Virus record (IMG/VR): IMGVR_UViG_3300050120_000152
Location: 124,001-188,000 of that record
Strand: one strand, 5' to 3'
Length of the DNA: 64,000 nucleotides
From: a virus
Shown: one piece after another, positions 7,346 to 58,676 of the stretch
Layout: every line of letters starts with the position of its first letter
Position numbering within the stretch: the first letter of the stretch is position 1
Translations under genes and position numbers: made by a program
The notes under the pieces: model-generated
What the model saw: only the letters and a program-made list of their open reading frames with translations
Told to the model about the DNA's origin: nothing
The model's database searches: none

Positions 7346-7355
7346 AGATTAAGTT

Positions 7356-7498
7356 GCAGTAATGACGGAATTGGTAGACGTGGCGGACTAAACCGACCTC
7401 TGAAAAGTAGAGAGGATAATCGTTAGATAATGGTGTAAATCGGCTGTCCTAGTTACTAACGTATCGAAGACGTGTAGGTTCAAATCCTACTTATTGCG
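7356..7498 (+). tRNA. tRNA (Leu-like) with about 70-nt insertion
   Basis: Acceptor GCAGTAA/TTATTGC, Leu/Ser-type D arm (GGAATTGGTAGACG), variable hairpin ACGT...ACGT and T arm GTAGG-TTCAAAT-CCTAC are clear. Between the D arm and the variable arm lies about 70 nt more than a tRNA needs, with a CCTCT...AGAGG hairpin. TAA (Leu) can be read at CTAAA, but the exact anticodon stem is unclear. No CCA encoded. Confidence 0.6.
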
Positions 7499-7507
7499 AT
7501 GTTTTAT

Positions 7508-7624
7508 ACGTACATAGCTCAGTCTGGGAGAGCAGCCCCGTAGGAGGGGTAAGTTAAATCAATTTGACGTTTAGGCGTTGCAATGCGATACTGGTCGGTG
7601 GTTCGAATCCATCTGTGCGTACCA
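7508..7624 (+). tRNA. tRNA with long insert before the T arm
   Basis: Acceptor ACGTACA/TGTGCGT, D arm GCTC...GAGC, T arm GGTGG-TTCGAAT-CCATC and encoded ACCA. The anticodon stem GCCCC/GGGGT leaves a 6-nt loop GTAGGA (AGG, Pro, is possible). About 46 nt with two small hairpins sit between it and the T arm. Confidence 0.6.
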
Positions 7625-24957: not shown

Positions 24958-26109
24958 TCAGTCCGTTGAAGCACATTCGTCTGAAATGTTAAAATCTTTA
25001 TAATGCTTAATAAGCCAAGCTTTGTCATCAAATGGTTTACCAGTATAGTAACTCATAGCTACATTGAACATCATAGGTTCTAGTTCATCTTTAGCCTTCA
25101 AAGCAAATTCTTTGCGCGATAATAAGGAATTATCATGAAAAAATTTAATAGGTGCGTCAAGCTTTTTATATAATTTTCTAACAATTAATTCCATTTCATC
25201 AATACGATTAAGTAAATATATATCATGACTAAAATGAGCCCTTACATCATCACTTAATTCATTAACCACGCACTCAAATAAGTTACGTGGATGAGTTACA
25301 TTGTCTTTCAGTGAATGTAGATTTTTGTACCAGTCACATTTTACTTTAATGTTCATACCATCAACATTGATAACATATCCTTCAATATCTTTCATATTTG
25401 GAATATTGTCTACGAATTCGATCAATTTAACTGGATCAATATCATAAAAATGGTCTTTCACCAAATGCTGAACACAACCAAATTCCTCCATGTCAGATTG
25501 TAACATACTATATGGATAATCCATACCATTCGTCAAATCTCGTGCCGAAAAAATGGTTAAATTGGTTTTTTGATACGGTAAAACAATTCTAAATTTTGCA
25601 TCAGTAAATTCCATACTTACAGAATATCCCTTATGCATCATGTACATGAGGAAATTATGCAACGTTGAGTTTTCTTCCAGCTGAAGAAATTCATTTGCAG
25701 CAATAGCTTGGTCGGATTGTAATGCAGTCTTAGACTTCAAATAAACCATGTCAGCAATAGGAAGTTTATAAGTAGTCATAATACTACCATCCATCTTGTC
25801 CATGATAGATCGAGTCTTGCTGAAATCCAAATTCATTGCCATTTGATTTTCGTTCAAATTAAAAAATTTGCGAGGGGTAAGTGCTGCCAACGATTCATAC
25901 TTATCATCTTTAGTAATGAAAGTAATTCCACGGCATTCCAAAGCCGATGGCTTCAAAAAATCAGTATAGGATGCAAGACGATAAGTGAACACACGGAATT
26001 GAGTACCGTTGAACAGATGGTCAACATAATAAAATGGGCTTTCGTCAGATTCGCATAATGCCATCAAATCTTGATAAAGATCACGGCCATATTGAGTTTG
26101 AACAGTCAT
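24958..26109 (-). CDS. rnlA: RNA ligase, T4 Rnl1 family
   Basis: 383 aa, close to the 374 aa of T4 Rnl1. Nucleotidyltransferase motifs are visible: KMDGSI (motif I, AMP-bound Lys, near residue 105), ECRGI and PRKFFNLNE upstream of it, SMEFT (motif III), IEGYVI (motif IV) and IKVKCDWY (motif V). T4 Rnl1 seals 3'-OH/5'-phosphate breaks in tRNA anticodon loops after host anticodon nucleases cut. Its 5' end overlaps the DUF488 gene. The unusual tRNAs in this window are possible substrates (inference). In the same frame, 32 open codons with a CKVCG motif follow its TGA stop. Confidence 0.92.
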   Translation of the reverse strand: MTVQTQYGRDLYQDLMALCESDESPFYYVDHLFNGTQFRVFTYRLASYTDFLKPSALECRGITFITKDDKYESLAALTPRKFFNLNENQMAMNLDFSKTRSIMDKMDGSIMTTYKLPIADMVYLKSKTALQSDQAIAANEFLQLEENSTLHNFLMYMMHKGYSVSMEFTDAKFRIVLPYQKTNLTIFSARDLTNGMDYPYSMLQSDMEEFGCVQHLVKDHFYDIDPVKLIEFVDNIPNMKDIEGYVINVDGMNIKVKCDWYKNLHSLKDNVTHPRNLFECVVNELSDDVRAHFSHDIYLLNRIDEMELIVRKLYKKLDAPIKFFHDNSLLSRKEFALKAKDELEPMMFNVAMSYYTGKPFDDKAWLIKHYKDFNISDECASTD

Positions 26110-28450: not shown

Positions 28451-28540
28451 TGGCGGGAGTAGTGGGAGTCGAACCCACGACGTTTAACATTAAATGCATG
28501 GATTTAGAATCCACCGCTCTGACCACTGAGCTATACTCCC
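28451..28540 (-). tRNA. Amber suppressor tRNA (CTA), Ser-like
   Basis: Acceptor GGGAGTA/TACTCCC with G73 and encoded CCA, D arm GCTC...GAGC, anticodon stem GTGGA/TCCAT with loop TTCTAAA (anticodon CTA, reads UAG), a 19-nt variable arm and T arm GTGGG-TTCGACT-CCCAC. The long variable arm with G73 points to serine charging. Confidence 0.9.
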
Positions 28541-33360: not shown

Positions 33361-33762
33361 TTAAATCAATGAACAATGTCCTTCAAGTAGATCAGCAATT
33401 TCAGAAAATGTATAATTTTGTTCAAGACAAGCATCTGTAGCGTAGAGGATACCATCATTTACATCAGTAATTGGAATAAGTTCATCATTAATATAAACAA
33501 ATGGCATTCTCATCCCAGCATCAACAACATTATTTTCAAAATTTACATTATTCTTTTTTAACCATTCATAAGATGGAACAGTTAATGATTCACATTTACC
33601 ATCAGCTACCATTTGAAGCACTCCTAAACAACAGAAGCGTGTAGGATTCTCCACCGTGTCACATAATGTGCTTGTGCCTTTATTATAATCTCCTGAACGC
33701 AATGCTGCGAACCAAGCCTTACCGAGGGCTTCTGGCATGCTGAAAGTTTTATTAATTTTCAT
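33361..33762 (-). CDS. CCLG-family protein, array copy 6
   Basis: 133 aa. Family features: SMPEALGKAWFAALRSGDY near the start, FCCLGVLQMV at residues about 49-58, VPSYEWLKK and a C-terminal FSEIADLLE. Last member of the tandem array on the - strand. Function unknown. Confidence 0.85.
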   Translation of the reverse strand: MKINKTFSMPEALGKAWFAALRSGDYNKGTSTLCDTVENPTRFCCLGVLQMVADGKCESLTVPSYEWLKKNNVNFENNVVDAGMRMPFVYINDELIPITDVNDGILYATDACLEQNYTFSEIADLLEGHCSLI

Positions 33763-33764
33763 GA

Positions 33765-34145
33765 TTAGAATGTTTCCATATTGGTTTCGATGATATCTGC
33801 AATTTGCTTAAAATTTAATCCCATCCCATCATTCATTACTGATAGAAAGCACTGTTGACCGTCTATCATGATAGGAGGATTATTGGTAATAGTACCGGCA
33901 ATATTAATAAAATTAATATTGTGGTCAACTAACCATTGAGTAGTAGGCAATCCACAAGAACGATAACCTTCTCCAGAATTTTTAAGTTTTTCCACAGTAT
34001 TATCACAAACCATCTGTAAAACTCCAAGACAACAATAACCGCCATGTTGATCTTGGAGTGATCCTTTACCCTGTTTATAGTCACCAGAGCGCAAAGCGGT
34101 TAACCACTTGTCAGCATGCTCTTTTGACATTTTAATAGGCTTCAT
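33765..34145 (-). CDS. CCLG-family protein, array copy 5
   Basis: 126 aa from MKPIKMSKEHADKWL, just after the stop of the next copy. YCCLGVLQMV and FKQIADIIE identify the family. Confidence 0.85.
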   Translation of the reverse strand: MKPIKMSKEHADKWLTALRSGDYKQGKGSLQDQHGGYCCLGVLQMVCDNTVEKLKNSGEGYRSCGLPTTQWLVDHNINFINIAGTITNNPPIMIDGQQCFLSVMNDGMGLNFKQIADIIETNMETF

Positions 34146-34146
34146 A

Positions 34147-34551
34147 TCAAGTACCCACAAAGTTCTTTTCGATGTAGTTGGCAATCTTCTTGAATGAATA
34201 TTCTGGGGAAATGCTATCATTCAAATCAGATAATGGCAGGATTTTACCATTACCCATTTTAACATCGGCATCGAAATAGTCTTGAGTTAAGCCTGAACTG
34301 CGAAAATGAATATCATATTCTTTCAGCCATTCTCGCGATGGGAAAGTTCTTGCTTCACCACTGTTTTCAAATTCTACACCACCAGTCAAACAATGCTGTA
34401 GAACACCCAAACAACAAAATTTAGGGTTATTGCCAGCATCACCATCATCATACAGTCGAGATTTACCACGCTTATATTCACCAGAACGTAAAGCAGCTAA
34501 CCATTTTGCCAAAATTTTCTTGGGCATCTTACTTTTTTCAAAATTGCTCAT
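34147..34551 (-). CDS. CCLG-family protein, array copy 4
   Basis: 134 aa. KMPKKILAKWLAALRSGEY, FCCLGVLQHCLTGGVEF and FKKIANYIE. This copy is closest to the isolated gene at 6950, sharing the HCLTGGVEF extension. Confidence 0.88.
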   Translation of the reverse strand: MSNFEKSKMPKKILAKWLAALRSGEYKRGKSRLYDDGDAGNNPKFCCLGVLQHCLTGGVEFENSGEARTFPSREWLKEYDIHFRSSGLTQDYFDADVKMGNGKILPLSDLNDSISPEYSFKKIANYIEKNFVGT

Positions 34552-34561
34552 GATGGTTTCC

Positions 34562-34960
34562 TTATTTTTGAATTAATTTAACTTTTGAACCCTTTTTCAG
34601 GGATTGTGATAATTGTTTCAACCGATTGACTGCCAATTGTTTCTCAGTCATGCTTTTTTCATTTTGTTCACGAGGCTTCCAAATAGCAAAAACATGCTGA
34701 TAGGCATCCTCACCGAACACATGATTTGCAGGAAAGATAGCTGTATAAGGACTATGCACATCTTCATGAACAATTTTCATATTCTTGAATTGTAAACCAC
34801 CCACACCAACAGATGTAGCCCATCCTAATGCACAAGATGAGCTACTATCTTCCAATACAGCTGGCGTCTGAACCAATTGATCGTACTTTTTGTTGGGCAA
34901 CTTGTCAAGAAATGCAATTAATGCATCACAATGATCAGCTTGTTCAACTTTAGTAAACAT
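34562..34960 (-). CDS. Distant relative of the CCLG family
   Basis: 132 aa inside the array. ALIAFLDKLPNKKYDQ...SCALGWATSVG follows the same order (helix, then Cys-x-LG-W core) as a separate phage family with a CxxGW motif. Lacks the CC pair and the C-terminal IADIIE helix. Confidence 0.6.
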   Translation of the reverse strand: MFTKVEQADHCDALIAFLDKLPNKKYDQLVQTPAVLEDSSSSCALGWATSVGVGGLQFKNMKIVHEDVHSPYTAIFPANHVFGEDAYQHVFAIWKPREQNEKSMTEKQLAVNRLKQLSQSLKKGSKVKLIQK

Positions 34961-34963
34961 AAA

Positions 34964-35431
34964 TTAAAATCCTTCTACCTGTTCCTCGACCAAATCTGCA
35001 ATTTGTGCAAACGAATAAGCGTACACATCGTTAAGATTAGATGCACAAAAAAATCCATTACCTTCATCACAATCTTTAGAAGAATCAAATCCTTTAGGAC
35101 GGCTACTTTCTGGAAGGAAAAAATAAAAATCATTACAGGGTTTGATATCTTTATAGGATGTTCCCTTTGTTGACGTAATATTATGGTCATCTAACCAATC
35201 AAACGATGGCAGCTGAACCGAAGGAGTATCAGTTGAACCAGCATATCTTTCAATCTTATGATCTAATGCATGCTCAAGCACACCCAAGCAACAATGTTGT
35301 CCTACATCATCGCACAACCAGCCACCATAACCTTGACGATACTCACCAGATCGCAATGCTGCCAGCCATTTGGCTTTAACTTCCATCGGCATTCTGGTTT
35401 TATAATGGGATGGATCGTAAGCAATACTCAT
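34964..35431 (-). CDS. CCLG-family protein, array copy 3
   Basis: 155 aa, the longest copy. RMPMEVKAKWLAALRSGEY, HCCLGVLEHAL, LPSFDWLDDHNI, FAQIADLVEEQVEGF. Its last 10 residues nearly match copy 1. Overlaps the next copy by 1 nt. Confidence 0.88.
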   Translation of the reverse strand: MSIAYDPSHYKTRMPMEVKAKWLAALRSGEYRQGYGGWLCDDVGQHCCLGVLEHALDHKIERYAGSTDTPSVQLPSFDWLDDHNITSTKGTSYKDIKPCNDFYFFLPESSRPKGFDSSKDCDEGNGFFCASNLNDVYAYSFAQIADLVEEQVEGF

Positions 35432-35847
35432 TATACACCTACCACATGATTTTCGATGATAAGAGCAATCTGCTTGAAGGTCTTACATGATCCATCATTC
35501 AATTCGGAAGCAGAATAATATTCACCATTTTTAAATTTAAAAGTTGGCTGTGTATCCAATGCACCAAAATCCGATTCATCAACAAACTTAATATTCCAAT
35601 CCTTCAACCACTGTTCCGTAGGTAAAGCTTCGGCTTCAGCATCATTGGCATAAAATTCTACACCACCAGTCAAACAATGCTGTAGAACACCAAGGCAACA
35701 GAAACGAGGAATATCATCTTCAACACCATCAAGATTTTCTGTGGTATAAAGCTTGTACTGACCCTGTTCATATTCACCAGAACGTAAAGCCCTTAACCAC
35801 TTGTTCAAGATAGCTTTCGGCATGGTACTAAAAAATTTCTTATCCAT
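35431..35847 (-). CDS. CCLG-family protein, array copy 2
   Basis: 138 aa. TMPKAILNKWLRALRSGEY, FCCLGVLQHCLTGGVEF, LPTEQWLKDWNIKF, LNDGSCKTFKQIALIIE. Confidence 0.88.
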   Translation of the reverse strand: MDKKFFSTMPKAILNKWLRALRSGEYEQGQYKLYTTENLDGVEDDIPRFCCLGVLQHCLTGGVEFYANDAEAEALPTEQWLKDWNIKFVDESDFGALDTQPTFKFKNGEYYSASELNDGSCKTFKQIALIIENHVVGV

Positions 35848-35849
35848 AA

Positions 35850-36305
35850 TTAAAATCCTTCTACCTGTTCCTCGATAATGTCTGCGATCTGTGCAAACGA
35901 ATAATTCATATTATCATTTAATTCTGTAGCATCATAGATACGACCATCCACAAGGAAGGAAGCCCCACAGCGAAAAGGACTATTATGGAATGAGATATTA
36001 TGACTTTCATTCCATTCACCCGATGGAAGCAATGCACTCTCCATCCCACCGGCTTTATATTCTACACGACCATCACAAACCATCTGTAACACACCAAGGC
36101 AACAATATTGCTTGATCAATGTATCATTCTTATACGTAACATGTTCCAACTTACCTTTACCCTGCTCATACGTGGGTTCCCACGATGTTACTCCATCACG
36201 AGTAACATCCTCACCAGAACGCAATGCTGCCACCCATAAGTCTTTAATCTCTTTAGGCATTTTGGTGTTAGGTGGAAGTGTATCAGGGTAATAAGGTATT
36301 GACAT
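35850..36305 (-). CDS. CCLG-family protein, array copy 1
   Basis: 151 aa, first in transcription order. KMPKEIKDLWVAALRSGED, YCCLGVLQMVCDG, LPSGEWNESHNISF, FAQIADIIEEQVEGF. An insertion (VTRDGVTSWEPTYEQ) separates the helix from the Cys core. Confidence 0.88.
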   Translation of the reverse strand: MSIPYYPDTLPPNTKMPKEIKDLWVAALRSGEDVTRDGVTSWEPTYEQGKGKLEHVTYKNDTLIKQYCCLGVLQMVCDGRVEYKAGGMESALLPSGEWNESHNISFHNSPFRCGASFLVDGRIYDATELNDNMNYSFAQIADIIEEQVEGF

Positions 36306-41179: not shown

Positions 41180-41321
41180 GGGCGTATGGGGGAATTGGTA
41201 GACCCGGCAGACTCATTGAAGTCTTCTAGAAATAGAAGATTTTGTAAAATAAATTTAATAGTTTATTTTACAAAATCTGCTTCCGAAAGGAGTCCCGGTT
41301 CAAGTCCGGGTATGCCTACCA
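41180..41321 (+). tRNA. tRNA-Leu(CAA) with 57-nt anticodon-loop insertion
   Basis: Complete Leu cloverleaf: acceptor GGGCGTA/TATGCCT with ACCA, D arm GGG...CCC, anticodon stem GCAGA/TCTGC, variable hairpin TCC-GAAA-GGA, T arm CCCGG-TTCAAGT-CCGGG. The anticodon loop (41212-41275) is 64 nt. Taking out 57 nt leaves CTCAAAA, the standard Leu(CAA) loop. The insert folds into two hairpins, one with a perfect 14-16-bp stem around 41240-41277. Confidence 0.88.
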
Positions 41322-41371
41322 AACAAATTCATGGTCTTCCCAAACCATGTCTTATGATGTAAGATATACAT

Positions 41372-41463: not shown

Positions 41464-41491
41464 TTGACAATGACGTTTAATAATGTATAAT
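41464..41491 (+). promoter_or_regulatory. Sigma70-like promoter of the permuted tRNA
   Basis: TTGACA, 16 nt, TATAAT. No ORF follows; the transcript covers the permuted tRNA and the two-hairpin motif. Confidence 0.8.
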
Positions 41492-41549
41492 TAGCTACAT
41501 GTAGTGGAACTCGTGACTCTGGTCACGTAAAGGATTGAAGCGAGAGCTT

Positions 41550-41629
41550 CTAAGGACTTGGAAATAGGGTATCGAATCCCTGCACCCCATGAGGGGGTGT
41601 TCGTCTAAGATAGGACACCAAGATTGCAT
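41550..41629 (+). tRNA. Circularly permuted tRNA candidate
   Basis: The 3' half comes first: CTTGG (41557), variable AAAT, T arm AGGG-TATCGAAT-CCCT, acceptor GCACCCC (41582) and A73. After 4 nt the 5' half follows: acceptor GGGGTGT (41594), TC, D arm GTC-TAAGATAG-GAC, A, CCAAG (41618). Acceptor (7 bp) and anticodon stem (CCAAG/CTTGG, 5 bp) both match. Beyond the anticodon stem a further 7-bp helix (TTAGAAG 41628 with CTTCTAA 41547) extends it, leaving a small internal loop as in precursor permuted tRNAs. TGC (Ala) or TGG (Pro) can be read, depending on the joint. Confidence 0.62.
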
Positions 41630-41632
41630 TAG

Positions 41633-41695
41633 AAGGTAGCCATTCTGGATGAATGGAGAAAATAACACGAGGCGTCAACTGTACACGCCTACTCG
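41633..41695 (+). ncRNA. Two-hairpin RNA motif, copy 1
   Basis: AAGGTAG, hairpin CCATTC...GAATGG, linker AGAAAATAACA, then hairpin CGAGGCGT...ACGCC-TACTCG. The sequence recurs at 58593 with the loops changed but stems kept. Confidence 0.75.
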
Positions 41696-41788
41696 CAAAG
41701 CTAGACATTAGTAAAAATGCACTCGCAAAGTTTTAAAAGTGTTGACAAAGAATAGAAACATGGTATTCTAGTTAACTCAGCAAGACAC

Positions 41789-41863
41789 GGGGAAGTACCT
41801 CAGAGACTAGAGGACTGGCATATGAGCCAGAAGTCGTAGGTTCAATCCCTACCTTCCCCACCA
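41789..41863 (+). tRNA. tRNA, isotype uncertain
   Basis: Acceptor GGGGAAG/CTTCCCC with ACCA, D arm CCTC...GAGG, anticodon stem CTGGC/GCCAG with a 6-nt loop ATATGA, T arm GTAGG-TTCAATC-CCTAC. Apart from the short loop it is a good tRNA; ATG (His) is read if the loop lacks position 38. Confidence 0.8.
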
Positions 41864-42576
41864 AATTAAGATGGTGTAAAATCAGCGCAGAGTTGATCAC
41901 CTAGATGATAAGGGCTTACAGAACTGTTATAGGTTCTACACATATCATCCATCTTATAATAAAGCATGTGGATGAGTTTCCCGAAAGGGTTGTGAGTCGC
42001 CAGTCCAGAATTACGAATGGGCCGTTATACTAGACTAACGGAATTACCACTGACGATAATCGTTTGCTACGATTTGAAACATTCTTAGGAATGTATGGTA
42101 TAGCACCTTGAAGGCGAAAGTTTTCATGGTCAGGATAAGGTATCGCAAGATGCTAAAAGGGTTTGCGCCCACAAGCGCCCCACCATAGTAATATGGCCCA
42201 ACTATACAAGCTGGTAGGACACTAAGCGGAATGCTTAGGATTCATCATATGGTGGATATAGATCAGCACTCAATGGTAACGAAAACCACATTAGAGCCAA
42301 TCGGTGAAATGTGAGAGGTTTAGCAGCCTCTAGTTACATGCAACATTGGCCTGAAGTATGTTAAACCGGTAGTGGTTCCAGTATGAGGGTTTGCGCCTAA
42401 ATGCGAAGCTGCAATGTTAATGGGTGCGAACGCTCATGAAACATACTGTGAATGTATCCTTAGCGGGAGAAAAGCAGAGAAGGTCGGGTTTGAAGCTGTC
42501 GGGATGGAGAAAGTTTCATTAATAGCATTTCGCTACACATCCTTTTAGATAAATACATATATCTAGGAGATTGTGA
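41864..42576 (+). ncRNA. Large structured RNA, 5' part (about 710 nt)
   Basis: No ORF, yet pairings are dense: TAAGATGG/CCATCTTA around AGAAC...GTTCT, CCGTTA-TACTAGAC-TAACGG, a three-way junction TACCA/TGGTA holding AATCG...CGATT and ACATTC-TTAG-GAATGT, CCACCATA/TATGGTGG, CTAAGC-GGAAT-GCTTAG, AACATTG/CAATGTT. The size, phage setting and tRNA neighbourhood are like those of the giant ornate RNAs (GOLLD, ROOL), but I cannot confirm homology. Confidence 0.6.
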
Positions 42577-43275
42577 ATGAATTTTTGTCATTACGGTTGT
42601 GGAAAAGAAGGTCTGTTCTATTCTGAATCATCAAAGCGTTGGAGATGTTGCAAAAATCCAGCATTATGTGATGGTAGGAAACGTGAAGTCAGTACAATGA
42701 ATATAAATGGAGAGTCCCATAAAAGACTCAAAATGAAGTATAAAAATTGTCCTGAATGTGGGTTGAAGGTATCTGCACCAACATTAGCAGCACATGTACG
42801 TAAATGTACACGAAAACTTACTTGCATAGTATGTGGCAGTGAACATAAGCGTGATCAGGCAATAACATGTTCTGATAAATGTCGTAGTATATTAACTTCT
42901 GAAACAATAAGAGGACAATATGCTGATGGTAGTAGATCACCTAGAAAAGCCAAGAAAACGTCTGTAATATATGACGAACACGTTTTTGATAATGATGTAG
43001 AAGTTCTAGCATACAAATTGTTAGTTTCAATGAAAGTTGACAACTTGCAGCATGAAAGTGTTAGAATTCCATATGTCTATGAAGGATTAGACCATACATA
43101 TTTTCCTGATTTTACTTACGATGATGGTAACCAAAAATGTTTGGTTGAAATCAAAGCTGGTGGTAGAATGAACATGAGCAATTATGCTAAACTGCGCGCC
43201 GCTGAATCGTTAGGATATAAAATCATACTGTGGGATAGAAATGTTATTAAGAAGCTTTCTTCTAATAAAGACTGA
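42577..43275 (+). CDS. Zinc-finger endonuclease-like protein
   Basis: 232 aa. N-terminal Cys/His clusters (CHYGCGKEG, CPECGLKV...HVRKC, CIVCGSEH...CSDKC) form two or three zinc fingers. The C-terminal part (YFPDFTYDD...KCLVEIKAGG) has the D...ExK order of a PD-(D/E)xK/VSR-like nuclease. Dense RNA structure on both sides suggests a homing-type insertion into an RNA gene. Confidence 0.75.
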   Translation: MNFCHYGCGKEGLFYSESSKRWRCCKNPALCDGRKREVSTMNINGESHKRLKMKYKNCPECGLKVSAPTLAAHVRKCTRKLTCIVCGSEHKRDQAITCSDKCRSILTSETIRGQYADGSRSPRKAKKTSVIYDEHVFDNDVEVLAYKLLVSMKVDNLQHESVRIPYVYEGLDHTYFPDFTYDDGNQKCLVEIKAGGRMNMSNYAKLRAAESLGYKIILWDRNVIKKLSSNKD

Positions 43276-43713
43276 TGGACAAACGAACCTGCTCGACCTT
43301 AGTGGGTAAACTAGCCTTGATTGGCACTTTGAATATTATCAAAATAACGAAAAATGCAAAGTCAGGTTCGGTTACAGTTGAAAATAGCATAATGCTCCAC
43401 CGAAAGGAATGGAGTCATGCAAAAGCTCGCAAGGCTAATGTATGTTGGTAAAGAACTGCAAGTATGGGTGTAGCCACCCTTAGCTGCTCGCAAGGCAGGC
43501 TGAATGGGAAATGCCGAATAGACTGTAGCGACAATGGAAACGCCACCATTTAAAATAAGGCTGCTATGATGATGTACATATTTGTGGTCGAAAGACTAGA
43601 GTATGTGGACAAGTCGGGAAAAGGCTCGCAAAGCCCTATAATCCGCACGAAAGCATTATCACGAAGAGTGTAATCTCAACTCGACATATTTTTATAGACA
43701 AGTGCATCCAGAA
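43276..43713 (+). ncRNA. Large structured RNA, 3' part
   Basis: No ORF. CGAACCTG/CAGGTTCG closes a 90-nt domain; further hairpins are CTCCA...TGGAG, GGGTG-TAGC-CACCC and three with a TCGCAA loop (AGC-TCGCAA-GGCT, CTGC-TCGCAA-GGCAG, GGC-TCGCAA-AGCC). The same CTCGCAAAG loop occurs at 41691 and 41721, linking both parts of the region. Confidence 0.55.
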
Positions 43714-57703: not shown

Positions 57704-57809
57704 GGGTCGGTAGCTCAGTTGGTAGAGCAGGAGACTTATTCAAGTATCTTCAATGAGGATACTTCTATTAATCTCTTGGTCGCGGGTTCGAACCCCGCCC
57801 GACCCACCA
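57704..57809 (+). tRNA. tRNA-Lys(TTT) with 30-nt anticodon-loop insertion
   Basis: Full Lys cloverleaf very close to E. coli tRNA-Lys: acceptor GGGTCGG/CCGACCC with ACCA, D arm GCTCAGTTGGTAGAGC, anticodon stem GGAGA/TCTCT, T arm GCGGG-TTCGAAC-CCCGC. The loop (57737-57773) is 37 nt: a 7-nt bulge, a 7-bp hairpin AAGTATC...GATACTT, a 7-nt bulge. Removing 30 nt gives CTTTTAA, the standard Lys loop; another joint would give TAT (Ile). Confidence 0.9.
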
Positions 57810-58347: not shown

Positions 58348-58375
58348 TTGACAAGCTGCAATGGTGTTGTATAAT
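58348..58375 (+). promoter_or_regulatory. Promoter of the His-like tRNA
   Basis: TTGACA, 16 nt, TATAAT. Confidence 0.85.
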
Positions 58376-58419
58376 ACAATTACACAATCGAGAGCTTTAG
58401 CGGTAACAGAATCGACTGT

Positions 58420-58586
58420 GGGGATGTGCACGGAGCGGCAACGTGTTCACGTTGTGATGTGATAAGGATATAGGACAGTAGGATAACAGAATAAACCCTG
58501 ATTGATTCGCGAGTCAACATGAATAAACCTGTTAGAGTATTGTTACAATCTGAATCATATTGTGGGTTCGAATCCCACCATCCTCC
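58420..58586 (+). tRNA. tRNA-His(GTG)-like with about 95-nt insert
   Basis: Acceptor GGGGATG/CATCCTC, D arm CACG-GAGCGGCAA-CGTG, anticodon arm TCAC-GTTGTGAT-GTGA (GTG with one extra loop nucleotide), T arm GTGGG-TTCGAAT-CCCAC and C73, which fits histidine; G-1 is absent. About 95 nt with hairpins separate the anticodon arm from the T arm. No CCA. Followed by the second two-hairpin motif. Confidence 0.6.
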
Positions 58587-58592
58587 TCGCTA

Positions 58593-58651
58593 AAGGTAGC
58601 CATTCTGATGAATGGAGAAAATAACACGAGGCACATATGCGCGCCTACTCG
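58593..58651 (+). ncRNA. Two-hairpin RNA motif, copy 2
   Basis: AAGGTAG-CCATTC-TGAT-GAATGG-AGAAAATAACA, then CGAGGC...GCGCC-TACTCG. Matches 41633-41695 except in the loops. Both copies follow tRNA-like sequences under strong promoters. Confidence 0.78.
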
Positions 58652-58676
58652 ATTAACCATCATTTGGCAAAAAGAG

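What the first reader, a model, noticed from the sequence alone, without database searches (positions are those of the whole stretch)
41464..41629. Circularly permuted tRNA gene in a phage
Seen: the 3' half of a tRNA (anticodon 3' strand, variable, T arm, acceptor 3' strand) lies directly upstream of a 5' half (acceptor, Glu/Asp-like D arm, anticodon 5' strand). Three helices join them: 7-bp acceptor, 5-bp anticodon stem and a 7-bp extension beyond it. This is the precursor plan of permuted tRNAs known from red and green algae and some archaea. I know of no phage example.
Basis: partly seen in the sequence, partly recalled or inferred. Interest (0 to 1): 0.92.

Follow-up and report, generated by a model that had tools for sequence, protein, structure and literature searches.

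The report
Permuted tRNA-like domain in phage RNA
The permuted tRNA fold is really there, but it is most likely not a tRNA gene: it is a tRNA-mimicking head on a small RNA whose body, absent from Rfam, is shared by many phages that usually carry a normally ordered tRNA-like head at the same spot.

Summary
The three helices exist as described and are the minimum-energy fold (-55.1 kcal/mol, 0/200 shuffles as good). The same core (P0, 8-bp P1, hairpins P2 and P3, AAnUAACACGA junction) occurs in dozens of phages; P0 and P1 covary strongly (111 double changes in 30 sequences). No Rfam 15 family matches it. In relatives the P1 loop is empty, holds a non-tRNA insert, or most often holds a tRNA-like domain in ordinary order. 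The same phage has a second copy (58386-58655) with an ordinary-order domain. A prophage variant carries the tRNA-like domain outside the core. Only the window copy is permuted: its tRNA-like fold hangs by the anticodon stem, with the acceptor closed by AUGAG. That topology matches the tRNA-mimic head of bacterial Y RNA YrlA, but neither YrlA sequence nor Ro60 is present. Evidence against a decoding tRNA: no bulge-helix-bulge motif, an 8-nt T loop, no GG in the D loop, no ARAGORN call after rejoining, and an ordinary tRNA-Ala(UGC) elsewhere in the genome. Best reading: a non-decoding tRNA-mimic module on a new phage RNA family; its function is inferred.

The parts
41464..41491 (+). sigma-70-type promoter (TTGACA, 16 nt, TATAAT)
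   Evidence: 12 of 12 consensus matches; function inferred
41540..41544 (+). P0, 5' strand (GCGAG)
   Evidence: fold; P0 covaries in 30 relatives
41547..41554 (+).
   Evidence: fold; P1 covaries, 99.2% of cells paired
41557..41622 (+). circularly permuted tRNA-like domain as a whole (anticodon-type stem, T arm, closed acceptor hairpin, D arm)
   Evidence: permuted-tRNA model 24.8 bits; MFE fold
41557..41561 (+). anticodon-type stem, 3'-half strand CTTGG (pairs with 41618-41622)
41566..41581 (+). T-type arm, 8-nt loop TATCGAAT
   Evidence: the same kind of 8-nt loop occurs in L104 and L043 tRNA-like domains
41582..41600 (+). acceptor-type hairpin GCACCCC-ATGAG-GGGGTGT (discriminator-like A 41589, spacer TGAG 41590-41593)
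41603..41616 (+). D-type arm (GTCT-AAGATA-GGAC)
   Evidence: sequence similarity to tRNAs not above random
41618..41622 (+). anticodon-type stem, 5'-half strand CCAAG
41629..41635 (+). P1, 3' strand (TTAGAAG)
41640..41656 (+). P2 hairpin after GGTAGC
   Evidence: fold; near-identical in the 58-kb copy
41657..41691 (+). conserved junction AAAATAACACGA, P3 GGCG(41671-41674)/CGCC(41686-41689) and TA
   Evidence: alignment A3; P3 and this junction were partly fixed by the search pattern
41692..41696 (+). P0, 3' strand (CTCGC)
58348..58375 (+). promoter of the second copy
   Evidence: 12 of 12 consensus matches
58386..58655 (+). second copy of the RNA family, P1 insert in ordinary tRNA order (acceptor GGGGATG 58420-58426 / CATCCTC 58579-58585)
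   Evidence: core model 32.5 bits; sequence and fold

Best explanation
Window 41540-41696 encodes a small structured phage RNA with its own consensus promoter. It belongs to a phage RNA family that Rfam does not hold: a junction of P0, P1, P2 and P3 with a conserved AAnUAACACGA strand. The loop of P1 is a site where tRNA-derived domains are carried. In this copy the domain is attached by its anticodon stem instead of its acceptor stem, so the fold is permuted and the acceptor stem ends in a closed AUGAG loop. It most likely works as a tRNA mimic: the tRNA-shaped head is presented on P1 to tRNA-binding proteins (processing or modifying enzymes, or a nuclease), much as the head of YrlA does, and no mature decoding tRNA is released. 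Shown: fold, P0/P1 conservation, ordinary-order relatives, second copy, YrlA-like topology. Inferred: transcription, protein binding, mimic function.
For: P0 and P1 covary: 99.3% of cells paired, 111 double-change cells against 30.5 shuffled, score 0.561 against 0.122 shuffled and at most 0.103 slid. In nearly all full copies P1 is exactly 8 bp while its loop varies from about 8 to 191 nt. Most inserts are tRNA-like in ordinary order, several with anticodon arms that cannot decode (UUCG in L012; 4-nt loop in L010). Some inserts match the tRNA model or the tRNA-like mascRNA model weakly to well. The same phage has a second copy with an ordinary-order insert and a nearly identical 3' core. A variant carries a covarying tRNA-like domain outside the core. 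The Rfam YrlA consensus has the same order: basal stem, T arm, closed acceptor hairpin, D arm. Both copies follow 12/12 promoters. The 8-nt T loop recurs in two other members' tRNA-like domains.
Against: The permuted insert is a single case, so its own helices cannot be tested by covariation. Similarity of its 5' half to tRNAs is not above random. The D loop lacks GG, so the standard elbow contacts may not form. No expression or binding data exist.
Confidence: 0.7

Rival explanations
1. A true permuted tRNA gene: the junction is cut and sealed to a circle, RNase P and 3' enzymes remove TGAG, and a tRNA with loop AUUGCAU (Ala UGC-like) results.
For: Correct cyclic order of all four helices; permuted-tRNA model 24.8 bits; the phage encodes a T4 Rnl1-type RNA ligase.
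Against: No BHB at the junction (GGA/AUUGCA internal loop), against the definition in PMC3978253; rejoined molecule not called by ARAGORN; 8-nt T loop and D loop without GG; ordinary tRNA-Ala(tgc) in the genome; outer helix explained by the conserved core; no RtcB.
Confidence: 0.06
2. A decaying relic: a tRNA-like insert that was duplicated in tandem, lost its outer halves and now has no role, while the core RNA still functions.
For: Weak 5'-half similarity, T-loop and D-loop departures, P1 one pair shorter than in relatives, geometry alone not rare by chance.
Against: Acceptor- and anticodon-type stems are fully paired; the 8-nt T loop also occurs in two other tRNA-like domains of the family.
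Confidence: 0.15
3. A two-piece RNA: RNase P and 3' processing open the closed acceptor at TGAG, giving an acceptor end that can receive CCA while P0, P1 and the anticodon-type stem hold the pieces together, as in permuted tmRNA.
For: The acceptor-plus-T-arm stack, recognised by RNase P in real tRNAs, is present with A73 and a 4-nt spacer.
Against: The stack is 11 bp, not 12; ordinary-order relatives would be cut away from their core by the same step; no data.
Confidence: 0.09

Closest known systems
YrlA (bacterial Y RNA, Rfam RF02553), tRNA-like effector module
   Same: Basal stem, then T arm, closed acceptor-type hairpin, D arm, back to basal stem: the same permuted tRNA topology. Y RNAs are reported in phages.
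   Different: RF02553 does not match the window insert; no TROVE/Ro60 gene in this phage or in ten phages with the core; the body is the P0-P3 core, and most relatives are not permuted.
Circularly permuted tRNA genes of red and green algae and archaea
   Same: 3' half before 5' half with a short spacer between acceptor strands.
   Different: No BHB motif, not callable as a tRNA after rejoining, third helix belongs to another RNA.
tmRNA, including permuted two-piece tmRNA
   Same: A tRNA-like domain combined with a larger structured RNA; the prophage variant carries it at the RNA's ends.
   Different: No tmRNA gene or model match at the locus; no tag reading frame identified; the variant's tRNA-like domain has a real D arm.
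MALAT1 mascRNA/MEN beta tRNA-like RNA (RF01684)
   Same: tRNA-like structure embedded in a longer noncoding RNA; weak model matches to inserts in L010, L041 and L059.
   Different: Ordinary order, eukaryotic, all matches below the curated cut-off.

Membership tests
Circularly permuted tRNA gene | 3' half upstream of 5' half, all cloverleaf helices formable | tested here: met
Circularly permuted tRNA gene | BHB (strict or relaxed) at the junction of the halves | tested here: not met
   junction is a 3x6 internal loop GGA/AUUGCA; definition from PMC3978253
Circularly permuted tRNA gene | rejoined sequence is a recognisable tRNA | tested here: not met
   ARAGORN finds no tRNA in five rejoinings; 8-nt T loop, D loop without GG
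Circularly permuted tRNA gene | circular intermediate and mature aminoacylated tRNA | not testable with these tools
   needs RNA from infected cells
YrlA / bacterial Y RNA | permuted tRNA-like head with closed acceptor hairpin | tested here: met
   order compared with the RF02553 consensus
YrlA / bacterial Y RNA | match to the RF02553 model | tested here: not met
   no match at E up to 10; genome search gives other places only, below cut-off
YrlA / bacterial Y RNA | Ro60/Rsr (TROVE) partner gene | tested here: not met
   none in this record; a host partner cannot be excluded
Phage P0-P3 core RNA (unnamed, this work) | P0 and 8-bp P1 with the conserved 3' core | tested here: met
   core model 35.1 bits (the window copy was in the model's alignment); P1 has 7 pairs plus a G-A mismatch in the window copy
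tmRNA | tmRNA model match / tag reading frame | tested here: not met
   no ARAGORN or Rfam tmRNA match at the locus

The most novel reading that the evidence does not exclude
The core is an unrecognised, widespread class of phage noncoding RNA, present in lytic phages of many hosts, often beside tRNA genes, and as a variant between Q and holin in P22-like coliphages. It displays exchangeable tRNA-like modules in three arrangements: inside P1 in ordinary order, inside P1 permuted as in YrlA, and outside P0. It would be convergent with Y RNA and tmRNA and serve phage infection by tRNA mimicry, for example as decoy or adapter for host tRNA-acting enzymes.
Probability: 0.45. Interest if true: 0.85.

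Novelty: new variant of a known kind. Interest (0 to 1): 0.62.

Why it matters
If right, phages widely carry a structured RNA that Rfam lacks and that repeatedly acquires tRNA-like heads, in at least one case a permuted one like that of Y RNA. That gives a defined sequence to test for tRNA mimicry in model phages, including an E. coli variant between Q and the holin gene. It also warns that permuted-tRNA scans will flag Y-RNA-like and core-RNA heads that are not tRNA genes.

Tried and rejected
Permuted group I intron-exon arrangement: no Rfam intron match near the locus, and only about 55 nt between promoter and insert. Known Rfam family: none at the locus or over the core in the related loci scanned. 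Close relatives of this phage: four weak hits (at most 38% identity) with the neighbouring cell-wall hydrolase; no near nucleotide match for window 1-25000 among phage records. Permuted-tRNA model on the other loci: many hits, apparently junctions of tandem ordinary tRNAs, so bit score alone is no proof. A shorter search pattern returned mostly unrelated DNA. Three Y RNA papers were not held.

Full report
CHECK OF THE OBSERVATION. The sequence holds the reported order: anticodon-type strand CTTGG (41557), T-type arm (41566-41581), GCACCCC-A-TGAG-GGGGTGT (41582-41600), D-type arm (41603-41616), CCAAG (41618-41622) and an outer 7-bp helix CTTCTAA/TTAGAAG. Folding 41536-41704 gives exactly these helices as both MFE and centroid: -55.1 kcal/mol, z -3.3, none of 200 shuffles as stable. 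A covariance model built from 34 phage tRNAs that I permuted at the anticodon loop scores 41557-41622 at 24.8 bits, E 1.7e-8 for 601 nt with filters off; the default-filter search of the window missed it. Three cautions apply. The four-helix geometry alone arises about 0.5 times per 64-kb strand in random sequence. Apparent junctions of tandem ordinary tRNAs often score higher on this model. Pairwise similarity to 541 tRNAs is above random for the 3' half (36; random 95% point 29) but not for the 'Glu/Asp-like' 5' half (26; 30).

THE FEATURE IS PART OF A LARGER RNA. Reading them showed a shared motif: P0, AG, P1, an insert, P1', GGUAGC, hairpin P2, GGAGnAAnUAACACGA, hairpin P3 GGCG..CGCC, UA, P0'. 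Pattern scans found it in about 35-40 IMG/VR stretches and one GTDB species genome. In 30 non-redundant cores P0, P1 and P3 form standard pairs in 99.3% of cells, with 111 double-change cells (30.5 in shuffles) and a covariation score of 0.561 (0.122 shuffled, at most 0.103 when slid). P3 and part of P0 were fixed by the search pattern, so the evidence rests on P1 and outer P0. Rfam 15 has no match at the locus at gathering score or at E up to 10, and none over the core in the related loci scanned.

WHAT SITS IN THE P1 LOOP. P1 is 8 bp in almost every full copy while its loop runs from about 8 nt (L022, L027) to 191 nt (L063). Most inserts are tRNA-like in ordinary order, usually with a small hairpin before the acceptor, a T arm near the 3' end and a G before P1'. 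Several cannot decode: the anticodon arm is capped by UUCG in L012 or has a 4-nt loop in L010. Some pass the tRNA model, such as L014 1401-1473 at 50.2 bits; others match the mascRNA tRNA-like model weakly. Some are not tRNA-like (L018, L040). The window insert is the only one I saw in permuted order: it hangs from P1 by its anticodon-type stem and its acceptor stem is closed by AUGAG.

SECOND COPY AND OUTER VARIANT. The core model finds a second copy in the same phage at 58386-58655, with a nearly identical P2 and junction and an ordinary-order insert with acceptor GGGGAUG/CAUCCUC and T arm GUGGGUUCGAAUCCCAC. Both copies follow consensus promoters (12/12). A variant (AGUAAAACGAGGCG..CGCCUAUC) occurs in 68 IMG/VR stretches, in Pseudomonas phage D6, and in P22-like coliphages between Q and holin; 118 of 5426 complete E. 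coli genomes carry the coliphage form. In 11 non-redundant prophage sequences this variant is wrapped by a tRNA-like domain with 6-7 bp acceptor, D arm and T arm at its outer ends. In eight of these the acceptor, P0 and T-arm helices covary (score 0.752, 0.234 shuffled). The 8-nt T loop of the window insert recurs in L104 and L043, which argues against simple decay.

WHAT IT RESEMBLES. The Rfam YrlA consensus, seen in an alignment, runs basal stem, T arm, closed acceptor hairpin, D arm, basal stem: the same permuted topology. YrlA is a tRNA mimic that is modified by DusA and TruB and tethers PNPase to Rsr (PMC8394870). The window insert is not matched by RF02553, and neither this phage nor ten phages with the core encode a TROVE protein. 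It therefore works like a YrlA head in shape but is not shown to be a Y RNA. Klebsiella phage KP13-26 carries, about 1 kb from its core RNA, two permuted tRNA-like domains that score 51.4 and 36.8 bits on the permuted model and 40.1 and 32.5 on YrlA (below its cut-off of 69), conserved in related Klebsiella phages.

WHY NOT A PERMUTED tRNA GENE. [quoted passage not shown] Here the junction is a 3x6 internal loop. Five rejoined versions are not recognised by ARAGORN. The T loop has 8 nt and the D loop no GG. An ordinary tRNA-Ala(UGC), the only decoding the loop would suggest, is present elsewhere. The phage has a T4 Rnl1-type ligase but no RtcB, so sealing is not impossible; this keeps the rival alive at low probability.

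MECHANISM AND VERDICT. Shown: fold, conserved core, exchangeable insert, second copy, YrlA-like order. Inferred: a stable RNA from its own promoter, whose tRNA-shaped head is offered to tRNA-binding proteins and is not released as a tRNA. The permuted insert is one case without homologues, so its selection cannot be shown yet.

Noticed in passing
window 43267-43682 (and about 41870-43266): GOLLD RNA 3' domain (149.7 bits, cut-off 150, E 4e-41); the ORF-poor stretch 41870-42570 may be its variable 5' domain, with a 232-aa ORF (42577-43275, no Pfam or PDB match) between the two.
   Followed up: partly
L060 399-548 and about 567-671 (Klebsiella phage KP13-26): Two YrlA-like RNAs with permuted tRNA-like domains and no TROVE gene in the phage; conserved in related Klebsiella phages.
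   Followed up: partly
window 57704-57809, 41186-41325, 7355-7501, 7508-7624; L265 2536-2661: tRNA-like genes with insertions of roughly 25-70 nt in the anticodon or variable region, intron-like in position; similar long tRNA matches in other large phages (L052, L053, L054).
   Followed up: partly
window 25327-25938 (-): T4 RNA ligase 1 family protein (PF09511, 70.4 bits) in an open frame of 397 aa.
   Followed up: no
window 28451-28540 (-): tRNA with CTA anticodon, called tRNA-Pyl by ARAGORN (66 bits on the tRNA model); possibly an amber suppressor.
   Followed up: no
window 41789-41863: tRNA with a 6-nt anticodon loop (CUGGC-AUAUGA-GCCAG), anticodon not assignable.
   Followed up: no
window 33361-36305 (-): Tandem array of related small proteins sharing a WLAALRSGEY..CCLGVLQ motif.
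   Followed up: no
L057 2972-3062 (phage CUS-3); 118 of 5426 complete E. coli genomes: Variant of the core RNA in the Q-to-holin interval of P22-like prophages, unannotated in the E. coli record viewed.
   Followed up: partly
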